Assembly (NCBI GenBank): GCA_947311505.1
Contig: CAMZLL010000196.1
Coordinates: forward strand, 1 to 32,373
DNA length: 32,373 nt
Direction of reading: 5' to 3'
Origin: an uncultured Cryomorphaceae bacterium
Lineage (GTDB): Bacteria; Bacteroidota; Bacteroidia; Flavobacteriales_D; Parvicellaceae
A program made the position numbers and the translations under genes. Positions 1,986-5,758 of this stretch are shown here, piece by piece (the first letter of the stretch is position 1; every line of letters starts with the position of its first letter). The notes under the pieces were generated by a model that was given only the letters and a program-made list of their open reading frames with translations, did no database searches and was not told the origin of the DNA.

Positions 1986-3593
1986 ATGAAAACAACTTGG
2001 ATACGTTCATCTTTCAAATTACTATCTTTATCTTTTGCTCTTGCCCTTACATCGTGTGGCGAGGAAGTTGCGGATGCTAAAGTCCTTAAGCACAGTCCCG
2101 AATTTAATATGATTAGCGGTATAGATAATCTGGCGATTGTCTATACGGTAGATATAGTCAACATTATAGAAAAAACGGCCTTTGATAAAAATGCAGACAT
2201 GCCTGCTATAGTGAAAATGGGTTGGGCTACGCAGGTACAACCAAAATTAAAACCAGAAAACTCAGGAGTGATTTTAGCAGGAAACAATCCTATAGCCATG
2301 TCTATGGGAGAAGATGGAGAACCTGCATATATTATGACAACTTTAAAGGTAGTGGATGCTAGCAAAGTGGGAAGTATGCTAGATGAATTGGGGGTGCTTA
2401 ATGCAAATATAAAAAGTACTGGTTCTGGTGATGATATTTTATATACGGTAGAAGATGATGAAGTCGCTTTGGTGTGGGATTCTGAAAATTTAGTAGGAGT
2501 ATATAGTACAAAGGAGTCTTCAATGAAGATAGCAAAAGAACTACTAGATATTAGATACGTAGATGGTGCCGATAACGAAGGGCTAGAAGGTTATTTGAAT
2601 CAAGAGGACGATTGGAATGTGTATTATGATTTTAAAACTTTGCAAAAATTCACAAGTCATAAAAACTATACCGGTGGAGAGCTTTCAGAAGAAATGCTAG
2701 CAAAAATGGAGGGAGCTTACACGATAACTAAAGGAAATTTTGAAGCAGGAGAAATCAAGTTTGAAGTGGATGTACATGCGCCTCAAATGATTGAATCTGA
2801 ATATAATGTTTTGTCTCAAAAAACTATATCTGAAGAGTTTTTAAACTATTTAACACCTGATAAATTGCTTTCTTTTGGAACACTTTCATTAAACATGGAC
2901 AATCTATTTACAGTTATAGAAATGAGTAGCCAAGAAGAATATACAGATGAAAATGTAAAAAGAGAAACAGGCCTAAGTAAAAAAGAAATTGAATCGATAT
3001 TCTCAGGAGAATTTGCTTTTTCATTGATAGATGTTATTCAAGAAAAGGTGGTAATCAATGCTTCTGATGACGACTTTTTTGAAGAAGAGTTTACATATCA
3101 AACGGAGAAACCATCTGTTGTAGTGACGCTAGGCTTGAACGACAGTACAATGCTGGGAGCGCTTCTGAGAAGTAATGAAGATAAATTTGAGTATCATAAT
3201 GGATATTATAAATTAGATGATGAGGCTTTTTTAGTGTTGACAGAGAATAAAGCAATCATTACGATAGATACTACAATGGCTGCGTTTTTTAAATCTGGAG
3301 ATCGTTTCGCTTTATATAAAATAAAGAATGGAAAACAAATCAAGACACCAATGTATGGCTTTGTTAATACTGATGTGGATAATTATCCTGAAGGTGTTTT
3401 AAAATTAATTAATGATTCTGGAGTAGAAGCACAAAAGATCAAAGATTTTATCCGATTATTTGACGATGTTTCTTTCGAAGGAGATTTTGTGCATTCAGAA
3501 TTTGTAGTGAAAATGAAAAACAAACAAGACAATGCCTTAAAGGTAATAATGGACTTTTTAGTTAATGAATTCAAAGATGAACCTTTCTTTTAA
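1986..3593 (+). CDS. Large lipoprotein, DUF4836-like
   Basis: A 535-residue protein with a lipoprotein signal peptide: positive N-terminus, hydrophobic stretch and lipobox LTSC with Cys24, so it should be lipidated and membrane-attached outside the cytoplasm. The body is acidic, mixed alpha/beta and has no transmembrane segment. Its length and the opening after the Cys (an SGIDNLAIVY-type segment, then a long N-terminal domain) resemble DUF4836 lipoproteins of Bacteroidota, whose function is unknown; this family call is by resemblance only. An acidic patch near residues 360-368 (ASDDDFFEEE) is notable. The gene has its own promoter element and its own terminator, so it is probably monocistronic. 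Confidence 0.75.
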   Translation: MKTTWIRSSFKLLSLSFALALTSCGEEVADAKVLKHSPEFNMISGIDNLAIVYTVDIVNIIEKTAFDKNADMPAIVKMGWATQVQPKLKPENSGVILAGNNPIAMSMGEDGEPAYIMTTLKVVDASKVGSMLDELGVLNANIKSTGSGDDILYTVEDDEVALVWDSENLVGVYSTKESSMKIAKELLDIRYVDGADNEGLEGYLNQEDDWNVYYDFKTLQKFTSHKNYTGGELSEEMLAKMEGAYTITKGNFEAGEIKFEVDVHAPQMIESEYNVLSQKTISEEFLNYLTPDKLLSFGTLSLNMDNLFTVIEMSSQEEYTDENVKRETGLSKKEIESIFSGEFAFSLIDVIQEKVVINASDDDFFEEEFTYQTEKPSVVVTLGLNDSTMLGALLRSNEDKFEYHNGYYKLDDEAFLVLTENKAIITIDTTMAAFFKSGDRFALYKIKNGKQIKTPMYGFVNTDVDNYPEGVLKLINDSGVEAQKIKDFIRLFDDVSFEGDFVHSEFVVKMKNKQDNALKVIMDFLVNEFKDEPFF

Positions 3594-3615: not shown

Positions 3616-3647
3616 AAGCCTTCTATTTTGTATAGAAGGCTTTTTTT
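3616..3647 (+). terminator. Rho-independent terminator after lipoprotein gene
   Basis: A perfect 11-bp stem (3616-3626 with 3632-3642), a 5-base loop and a run of Ts to 3647. It lies 23 bases after the stop codon. Confidence 0.9.
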
Positions 3648-3673
3648 ATGAAAAAAAATCATTCTTTATTTGA

Positions 3674-3700
3674 TTGATTATAAGTAATTAACTATCTTCG
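3674..3700 (+). promoter_or_regulatory. Promoter of the pspA operon
   Basis: TTG (3674-3676), 16 bases, then TATCTTCG (3693-3700), a one-base variant of TAnnTTTG. It lies 28 bases before the pspA ATG and directly after the preceding terminator. Confidence 0.5.
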
Positions 3701-3728
3701 AACACACAAAAATAAAAACAGTAAAACA

Positions 3729-4391
3729 ATGGGATTTTTTAAACGAATTACAGACATTTTCAGGTCAAATGTAAATGATGCATTAGACTCAGCAGAGAAC
3801 CCTGAAAAGATGATTAAACTAATGGTGGTAGATATGAAAGAGTCTATTACTAAATCAACAGCAGCTTTAGCAAAGGCAATGGCGCATACCAAACAAATGG
3901 AAAAGAAAAAGAATTTCCATAAAGCACAATCTGAAGCTTGGCAACAAAAAGCAATGTCTGCGTTGAAAGCCGGAAATGAAGGATTGGCAAAAAAAGCGTT
4001 GAGCAAAAAGAATGTAGAAGATCAAAACTTCTCTTCTTATAACAACATGTTTGAACAAGCCGATGCTACTACTACAAAACTGAAGGGGCAATTGGCTAAA
4101 TTAAAACAAAAGTATGACGAAGCTAAGGCTAAAGAGTCTATGCTCATCGCAAGAAGTAAAAACGCAGAAGCACAATCTGATATTGCTAAAAATATAGGCG
4201 GATTCAACGAAAATGCATTTGCTAATTTTGACAAGTTTGAAGAGAAAATATTAGAAAAAGAAGCGGAAGCAGAAGCTTTTACTGAATTAGCTGGTGAAGA
4301 TATTTCATTAGATGATGAATTTGATGCTTTGGAAACAGATACTGCTGTAGATGCTGAATTAGCGAAACTTAAAGAAATGATGAACCAATAA
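3729..4391 (+). CDS. pspA: PspA/IM30 family membrane-stress protein
   Basis: A 220-residue PspA/IM30 protein. The family consists of ESCRT-III-like coiled-coil proteins that assemble on the inner face of the cytoplasmic membrane and help it withstand damage. The N-terminus (MGFFKRITDIFRSNVND) is the amphipathic membrane-binding helix, followed by the typical NPEKMIKLMV segment. Most of residues 25-180 is a charged, Ala/Lys/Glu-rich coiled coil. The C-terminus ends in an acidic tail. This is the first gene of a three-gene unit with promoter and terminator. No pspF, pspB or pspC is present, so control must differ from the enterobacterial system. The symbol is assigned at family level. Confidence 0.92.
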   Translation: MGFFKRITDIFRSNVNDALDSAENPEKMIKLMVVDMKESITKSTAALAKAMAHTKQMEKKKNFHKAQSEAWQQKAMSALKAGNEGLAKKALSKKNVEDQNFSSYNNMFEQADATTTKLKGQLAKLKQKYDEAKAKESMLIARSKNAEAQSDIAKNIGGFNENAFANFDKFEEKILEKEAEAEAFTELAGEDISLDDEFDALETDTAVDAELAKLKEMMNQ

Positions 4392-4461
4392 TAGTATAAG
4401 GTCTCGTCAATTATAAATTAACTAATAATCAGGTTTTTGATCTGAATAAAAAAATAGTAAA

Positions 4462-4905
4462 ATGCCAAAATTTAATGTATTAAATACTGGAGATAATCAA
4501 GCTTTGATAAACGAAACCTATGCAAAGATTGATGGATTTGTAGAAGAGTTATTTCACGAAGATGAAGTAATTAAAATAGATGACATGTACTCGTTTTCTT
4601 TCGGTACAGTAACCATAAACATGTTGGTGCGCCCTTGGCACAGTGAAGATGTTTTAGTCGATGTGTTTTCATATCTAGCTGAGGATGTGGATTTATCCAA
4701 AGAACAATTAGATGAGTTATTGCGTTTGAATGCAACCATACCTTTTGGAAGTTTCGGACTTTCTTTAGAAAATTCTATTAAATTTCAATATACACTAGCT
4801 GGTAAAAACATTGATCTTAATGAGTTTTCTGCCGCAGTTCAAAACATAGCAGCCATAGCCGATCAATATGATGAGCAGTTTGAAATTATAGCTCAGAAAG
4901 CATAA
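4462..4905 (+). CDS. DUF2170-like (YjfI-type) protein
   Basis: A soluble acidic protein of 147 residues without signal peptide or membrane segment. Features include a central strand segment (MYSFSFGTVTINMLVRPW, about residues 43-60), a FGSFGLSLEN turn near 99-108 and a C-terminal helix with AAVQNIAAIADQ. Size, layout and position directly after pspA fit DUF2170, the family of E. coli YjfI, which also neighbours a PspA paralogue. The fold may be that of small secretion-chaperone-like proteins. It lies 70 bases after pspA and 13 bases before the next gene, so the three are probably co-transcribed. A role as partner or adaptor of PspA is inferred from context only. Confidence 0.6.
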   Translation: MPKFNVLNTGDNQALINETYAKIDGFVEELFHEDEVIKIDDMYSFSFGTVTINMLVRPWHSEDVLVDVFSYLAEDVDLSKEQLDELLRLNATIPFGSFGLSLENSIKFQYTLAGKNIDLNEFSAAVQNIAAIADQYDEQFEIIAQKA

Positions 4906-4918
4906 GAAAAGTTATAGG

Positions 4919-5707
4919 ATGTTGGTATTCGGAATCATACTTATAGCTATCGCAATCTTTCTGTATTTTAGAAAAAAGAAACTGGAAGATAAATTATTAA
5001 ACATTAAATACTTTGATAAGGTAGATATTAAGTCTGCTGTTGAAAATTGTATTTCTGTTTCTACGGAACTGGGTTCTGGGTATTATTCTCAGATGGTCAA
5101 AGTAGTAGCTGTAGCCAAAATGGATGAACCCATCCTTGGGGAGTTTAGTAATAAGGAGTGTGTGTATTATGAGGTATCTGCCGAACATCGATTTGAAAGA
5201 AAGCAAGAAACAAGAGATCAAAACGGTAGAGTAAGAACCAACTGGGTGGCCGGAACGAGTTCAATAGGAACGGCTAGAGTTGGAGGAGAGTTTTGGTTGG
5301 TTGACAAAAGTGGAGAAAAATTAGATATCGATATTGAAGGAGCCGATATGACGCTCGTAGATGCTGTAAGTGATTTTAAATCTACTAGACGATCAGTTGA
5401 TTTTTCATTTGGGTCTTATAATCCAGAGTCCTCTCGAAATGTTAGATCAAAAGGCTATAGCATTACTGAAAGTAATATTCCCGTAGGCAAACAACTGTTT
5501 GTTATAGGAGAATTACACGATAGAGATGGAGCGCCTAAGATTTCAAAGCCACAAGATGACGAAGCGGATAATCCTTTCATTGTATCTACAGTCTCAGAAG
5601 ATAAAGTAATAGGCAAGATAGAAGGTAAAGCTAAAATGATGATATTCGGTGCTATTGCTTGTTTAATTGGTGGTTTAATTCTAATCGGAATGGAGCTTTT
5701 TAAGTAA
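4919..5707 (+). CDS. GIDE/BAM-like double-anchored membrane protein
   Basis: A 262-residue protein with a transmembrane helix at each end: residues 1-17 (followed by RKKK) and about 240-259. Between them lies a beta-rich domain with the pattern of the GIDE/BAM region of MUL1/MULAN-type proteins: a conserved CVYYEVSAEH segment (81-90), a short linker with Trp109, GGEFWLVDKSGEKLDI (122-137) and a late GKQLFVIGELHD strand (190-201). The RING finger found in the eukaryotic relatives is absent. With both ends membrane-anchored, the domain should sit against the membrane. As last gene of the pspA unit it is a plausible membrane partner or recruitment factor for PspA, which is inference from synteny. 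The family call is by motif resemblance. Confidence 0.65.
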   Translation: MLVFGIILIAIAIFLYFRKKKLEDKLLNIKYFDKVDIKSAVENCISVSTELGSGYYSQMVKVVAVAKMDEPILGEFSNKECVYYEVSAEHRFERKQETRDQNGRVRTNWVAGTSSIGTARVGGEFWLVDKSGEKLDIDIEGADMTLVDAVSDFKSTRRSVDFSFGSYNPESSRNVRSKGYSITESNIPVGKQLFVIGELHDRDGAPKISKPQDDEADNPFIVSTVSEDKVIGKIEGKAKMMIFGAIACLIGGLILIGMELFK

Positions 5708-5724
5708 ATTTTATTAAAAACAAT

Positions 5725-5758
5725 AAAAAAGGGAAGTCAATAAGACTTCCCTTTTTTT
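5725..5758 (+). terminator. Terminator of the pspA operon
   Basis: An 8-bp core stem GGGAAGTC/GACTTCCC (5731-5738 with 5744-5751), loop of 5, flanked by six As and seven Ts that extend the stem. It ends the three-gene unit. Confidence 0.9.

What the first reader, a model, noticed from the sequence alone, without database searches (positions are those of the whole stretch)
3674..5758. Compact pspA / DUF2170-like / GIDE-BAM-like operon
Three genes lie between a clear promoter and a clear terminator. PspA deforms and protects membranes; the last gene encodes a protein anchored at both ends with a domain resembling the membrane-side domain of eukaryotic MUL1/MULAN but without the RING finger. This gives a self-contained membrane-stress module lacking PspB, PspC and PspF, and links a MULAN-like domain to an ESCRT-III-like protein.
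Basis: partly seen in the sequence, partly recalled or inferred. Interest (0 to 1): 0.65.

Follow-up and report, generated by a model that had tools for sequence, protein, structure and literature searches.

The report
PspA–chaperone–GIDE membrane operon in bacteria
Three side-by-side bacterial genes encode a membrane-shaping protein (PspA, a relative of eukaryotic ESCRT-III), a small chaperone, and a membrane-anchored protein carrying the GIDE domain of the human mitochondrial ligase MUL1; the same gene set recurs in another bacterial phylum, so the link is real and makes the original job of the GIDE domain testable.

Summary
Observation confirmed. Window 3729-4391 is PspA, 4462-4905 a CesT/YbjN-type chaperone (Pfam TY-Chap1; not DUF2170, though the same fold superfamily), 4919-5707 a two-TM protein with a GIDE/BAM domain and no RING. 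GIDE is an add-on to a published unit, the CesT/Tir–PspA dyad (Ravi 2024): 16 Bacteroidota dyads of the same pspA-first type lack it. Elsewhere in the order GIDE sits beside fabI with pspA at a distance (14 of 15 genomes), and two other Bacteroidota GIDE genes pair with LemA, so the partnership is not exclusive. Charge bias puts the GIDE domain in the cytoplasm, facing PspA and opposite to MUL1. Best mechanism (inferred): the chaperone controls PspA polymerisation and GIDE is its membrane docking/sensor protein, in place of PspB/PspC. I found no paper linking GIDE to PspA in the open-access library searched, but could not read the Ravi/Popp supplements. New variant of a known kind.

The parts
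3616..3650 (+). terminator of the upstream gene (hairpin 3616-3642 followed by T run)
   Evidence: sequence; the hairpin is listed on the - strand
3669..3700 (+). candidate Bacteroidota-type promoter TTTG-N20-TATCTTCG
   Evidence: 6 matches in the window against 2.8 expected, so weak
3729..4391 (+). pspA (220 aa), PspA/IM30, ESCRT-III-like; below the NCBIfam cut-off for canonical PspA (161 against 243 bits)
   Evidence: Pfam PF04012 4e-48; TIGR02977 161.4 bits
4462..4905 (+). TY-Chap1 / YbjN / CesT-Tir-type chaperone (147 aa)
   Evidence: PF22551 1.9e-11; AlphaFold model pLDDT 89; Foldseek best match 2plg 2.5e-7, then T3SS chaperones and BacA
4919..5707 (+). GIDE/BAM-domain membrane protein (262 aa), no RING
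   Evidence: PF12483 1e-20; model pLDDT 91.7
4919..4972 (+). TM helix 1 of the GIDE protein (residues 1-18), followed by RKKK
5207..5680 (+). region matched by the Pfam GIDE model (residues 97-254); the preceding beta strands complete a barrel that most resembles OB folds
5639..5692 (+). TM helix 2 of the GIDE protein (residues 241-258)
5725..5757 (+). operon terminator (14-bp stem, 5-nt loop, T run)

Best explanation
The locus is one operon for a PspA-type membrane maintenance module. Shown: PspA, a CesT/YbjN-fold chaperone and a two-TM GIDE protein are encoded together, in this order, in two phyla. Inferred: the chaperone binds PspA, keeps it from premature polymerisation and releases it at the membrane. 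The GIDE protein has its OB-like domain on the cytoplasmic side and serves as membrane receptor/sensor that docks the PspA-chaperone complex where the membrane is damaged, the job done by PspB/PspC in E. coli. The chaperone's constant partner is PspA, because dyads without GIDE are common. GIDE is the optional, specialising third part.
For: Families and folds. Same gene order and strand in g1 (3 species) and in all 15 Synergistota copies with enough upstream contig. In Synergistota all 13 genomes with a strong PspA match (E<1e-39) also have GIDE; those with weaker PspA matches have none (Fisher 6e-12, not corrected for relatedness). The g1 chaperone groups with the Synergistota ones and not with chaperones of GIDE-less dyads (100/100). 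In one other genus of the family (G031) GIDE lies two genes from a different, type II CesT_Tir_1-PspA dyad. 14 of 15 order-level genomes with GIDE beside fabI carry a pspA elsewhere. Cytoplasmic topology: 0 K/R before TM1 and 3-5 K/R in the 15 residues after it in all operon copies. A BacA-BacB (chaperone-PspA) interaction is mentioned as unpublished data in PMC10948618.
Against: No direct evidence of interaction among the three proteins. GIDE also lives without a pspA neighbour (beside fabI; beside LemA in two genomes without a pspA match), so its function need not depend on PspA. Many pspA-chaperone dyads lack GIDE. The frequency of pspA among GIDE-less members of family f2 was not measured, so 14 of 15 has no background. 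The GIDE tree does not settle whether g1 GIDE is kin to Synergistota GIDE (AU p 0.135) or to order-level GIDE (p 0.35).
Confidence: 0.55

Rival explanations
1. GIDE is a general membrane or lipid-homeostasis protein that shares a regulon with PspA but does not touch it; co-transcription only ensures that both are made together.
For: GIDE next to fabI in 15 of 15 family f2 genomes without pspA in the locus; next to LemA in two genomes; dyads without GIDE are common.
Against: Fixed order and adjacency in two phyla, with pspA and chaperone genes overlapping in Synergistota; the 15 f2 genomes still have pspA in 14 cases.
Confidence: 0.27
2. The chaperone's main client is the GIDE protein: it escorts or gates GIDE, and PspA is a downstream effector.
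For: Chaperones of GIDE-containing operons form their own clade with an extra conserved N-terminus (M-KF--L--G-N) that most of the dyad chaperones lack (alignment, tree).
Against: The clade contrast is a single evolutionary event; the chaperone persists beside pspA in 16 loci without GIDE.
Confidence: 0.13
3. Chance or hitch-hiking neighbours without functional relation.
For: None beyond the rarity of the operon in Bacteroidota.
Against: Same order and strand across two phyla.
Confidence: 0.03

Closest known systems
CesT/Tir-PspA dyad operons (Ravi et al. 2024, PMC11237479)
   Same: PspA encoded next to a CesT/Tir-superfamily chaperone, as a standalone pair or within larger operons.
   Different: The extra genes they describe are band-7/flotillin, AAA+, YuaF, spermidine synthase, DUF350 and others; a search of the main text finds no GIDE. 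Here the third gene is GIDE, the chaperone is TY-Chap1 rather than CesT_Tir_1 or DUF2170, and pspA comes first.
P. aeruginosa bac operon / E. coli yjfIJ (DUF2170-PspA)
   Same: Chaperone-fold protein beside a PspA; BacA structure 8q8o matches the window chaperone model at E 7e-4.
   Different: DUF2170 family, chaperone gene upstream of pspA, other partner genes.
Prokaryotic BAM/GIDE proteins and eukaryotic MAPL/MUL1 (PMC4457424)
   Same: GIDE domain between two TM helices; prokaryotic members lack the RING.
   Different: Predicted cytoplasmic domain, against intermembrane space in MUL1; no RING; operon partner PspA.
PspABC(F) system of E. coli
   Same: PspA at the membrane.
   Different: No PspB, PspC or PspF in the locus; GIDE proposed in the docking role.

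Membership tests
PspA/IM30 (PF04012) | full-length match over the curated cut-off | tested here: met
   164.3 bits against 33.9, residues 3-216
Canonical proteobacterial PspA (TIGR02977) | score over the equivalog cut-off | tested here: not met
   161.4 against 242.95 bits
TY-Chap1 / YbjN superfamily | curated cut-off and chaperone fold | tested here: met
   44.1 against 27 bits; fold match 2plg 2.5e-7, ExsC 7.9e-5
DUF2170 (PF09938) | match to the family model | tested here: not met
   no match for the window protein up to E 1; 1 of 29 relatives at 0.033
GIDE/BAM domain (PF12483) | curated cut-off | tested here: met
   74.3 against 23.6 bits, profile 3-158 of 160
GIDE/BAM domain (PF12483) | domain bounded by two TM segments | tested here: met
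   TM1 1-18, TM2 241-258; helices 2-31 and 227-261 in the model
MUL1/MAPL E3 ligase | C-terminal RING finger | tested here: not met
   protein ends 4 residues after TM2
MUL1/MAPL E3 ligase | GIDE domain on the far side of the membrane from the cytosol | tested here: inconclusive
   charge bias points to the cytoplasm; a prediction, not a measurement
CesT/Tir-PspA dyad | chaperone-fold gene adjacent to pspA on the same strand | tested here: met
PspABC(F) system | PspB, PspC or PspF encoded with PspA | tested here: not met
   flanking ORFs 1986-3593 and EF-P are neither; PspC-domain gene elsewhere in G027 and G028
OB fold (GIDE protein model) | clear structural match | tested here: inconclusive
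   VIA Z 9.2, 87 aligned, rmsd 2.8, mostly OB-fold chains at the top; Foldseek not significant

The most novel reading that the evidence does not exclude
The ancestral job of the GIDE/BAM domain was to work with ESCRT-III-like or other helical membrane-remodelling proteins (PspA, LemA) at stressed membranes, and the mitochondrial MUL1/MAPL, itself involved in mitochondrial fission and vesicle formation, inherited that job and added a RING.
Probability: 0.12. Interest if true: 0.85.

Novelty: new variant of a known kind. Interest (0 to 1): 0.58.

Why it matters
The conserved function of the MAPL/MUL1 BAM domain is called an open question (PMC4457424). A fixed bacterial operon that puts this domain beside an ESCRT-III-like protein and its chaperone gives a small, tractable system in which to ask what the domain binds. 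It also supplies a candidate membrane receptor for PspA in bacteria whose psp loci lack PspB and PspC.

Tried and rejected
DUF2170 for the second gene: no Pfam match. Defence-system reading: no PADLOC match. Bacteroidota-wide conservation: GIDE in only 5 of 395 phylum genomes and unlinked to pspA outside the host genome; the chaperone in 3 of 249 order genomes. Plasmid carriage: no tblastn match for chaperone or GIDE. Viral carriage: no match for the chaperone in IMG/VR. The single genome-contig scan gave only two loci because the chosen peptide patterns were narrow, so other phyla may carry the operon unseen. Origin of g1 GIDE: tree and AU tests do not decide. No known GIDE structure by sequence in the PDB. 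Literature: no paper found linking GIDE with PspA or LemA in bacteria; the supplements of Ravi 2024 and Popp 2022 could not be read.

Full report
What is there. The window is contig C196 of an incomplete (75%) bin of a Flavobacteriales-type genome; the near relative G026 is a MAG titled 'Flavobacteriales bacterium'. Pfam names PspA_IM30 (4e-48), TY-Chap1 (1.9e-11, with YbjN and CesT_Tir_1 behind) and GIDE (1e-20). The block ends at a strong hairpin terminator (5725-5757), begins after the terminator of the upstream gene, and has one plausible Bacteroidota-type promoter (3669-3700), a motif that is not rare in the window. Downstream is EF-P.

The second gene. The window protein does not match DUF2170; all 29 relatives match TY-Chap1 and YbjN. 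The AlphaFold model (pLDDT 89) matches Tll0839/2plg, ExsC, SycT and also BacA, the DUF2170 protein of the P. aeruginosa PspA operon. It is therefore the same fold superfamily but another family.

The third gene. GIDE domain, two TM helices, no RING. The model is confident (pLDDT 91.7) and shows a beta barrel between the helices; structural comparison favours OB folds (Z 9.2, only just above the usual background), with no significant Foldseek match. In all operon copies there is no K/R before TM1 and 3-5 in the 15 residues after it, which by the positive-inside rule places the domain in the cytoplasm. In MUL1 it is in the intermembrane space (PMC4457424).

Linkage. In the host family 4 of 39 genomes have GIDE and all four have pspA; of the 35 without GIDE five have pspA (Fisher 0.0015, uncorrected for kinship). 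Three are congeners with the operon. The fourth, G031, has GIDE behind an XRE-type regulator that is divergent from a different CesT_Tir_1-PspA dyad; its relative G030 has the same synteny without GIDE. A scan of GTDB contigs with the chaperone found a Synergistaceae MAG with pspA-chaperone-GIDE in the same order. Among 188 Synergistota genomes 15 carry GIDE, in 17 copies. In 15 copies pspA and the chaperone precede it; the other two are cut by contig ends, one with the chaperone fragment still visible. Thirteen genomes have a strong PspA match (E<1e-39) and all have GIDE; eleven others over the cut-off have only weaker PspA matches and no GIDE.

Limits of the linkage. In the phylum at large GIDE is rare (5 of 395) and not next to pspA outside the host genome. 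Sixteen Bacteroidota loci have the pspA-first dyad with a TY-Chap1-like chaperone and no GIDE. Seventeen have the other PspA type, most with the chaperone gene upstream of pspA; the two checked, L049 and L053, are CesT_Tir_1. In family f2 of the same order GIDE sits beside fabI in 15 of 15 genomes; 14 of these have a pspA elsewhere, in a type II dyad in all nine checked. Two further GIDE genes pair with LemA in genomes with no pspA match.

History. The PspA tree keeps g1 apart from the PspA of its own family, so the operon is not the vertical heirloom of that family; horizontal gain is likely but the donor is unknown. The chaperone tree joins g1 and Synergistota against GIDE-less dyads at 100/100 (unrooted). 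The GIDE tree leans the same way (92/98, with one other Bacteroidota row inside) but AU tests leave it open.

Mechanism. Shown: gene content, order, conservation. Predicted: folds and topology. Inferred: the chaperone's client is PspA, since it is the constant partner; GIDE is the membrane docking or sensing partner, standing where PspB/PspC stand in E. coli; together they place PspA polymers on damaged membrane. The complete congener genome G028 also encodes a PspC-domain protein elsewhere, so GIDE need not replace PspC in the whole cell.

Known or new. The CesT/Tir-PspA dyad was published by Ravi et al. 2024. Their main text does not mention GIDE, nor does that of Popp et al. 2022, and no paper linking GIDE with PspA was found. 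The supplements were not readable, so novelty is likely rather than proven. Verdict: new variant of a known kind.

Noticed in passing
L009:7474-8250 (G026): The GIDE gene of this congener is split over two frames that later return to register, by two indels or by sequencing error in the MAG.
   Followed up: partly
L071-L085 (family f2 genomes): GIDE gene next to fabI in all 15 genomes of one sister family, a stable context without pspA; suggests a link to fatty acid or membrane synthesis.
   Followed up: partly
L007:891-2544, L008:828-2352: GIDE protein paired with a LemA protein (PF04011 about 1e-48) in two Bacteroidota genomes that have no pspA match.
   Followed up: partly
L103:2114-14871 (G744), L102 (G666): Two copies of the pspA-chaperone-GIDE operon in one Synergistota genome, about 10 kb apart in G744.
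   Followed up: no
window 1986-3593: 535-aa protein directly upstream of the operon with no significant Pfam or NCBIfam match.
   Followed up: no
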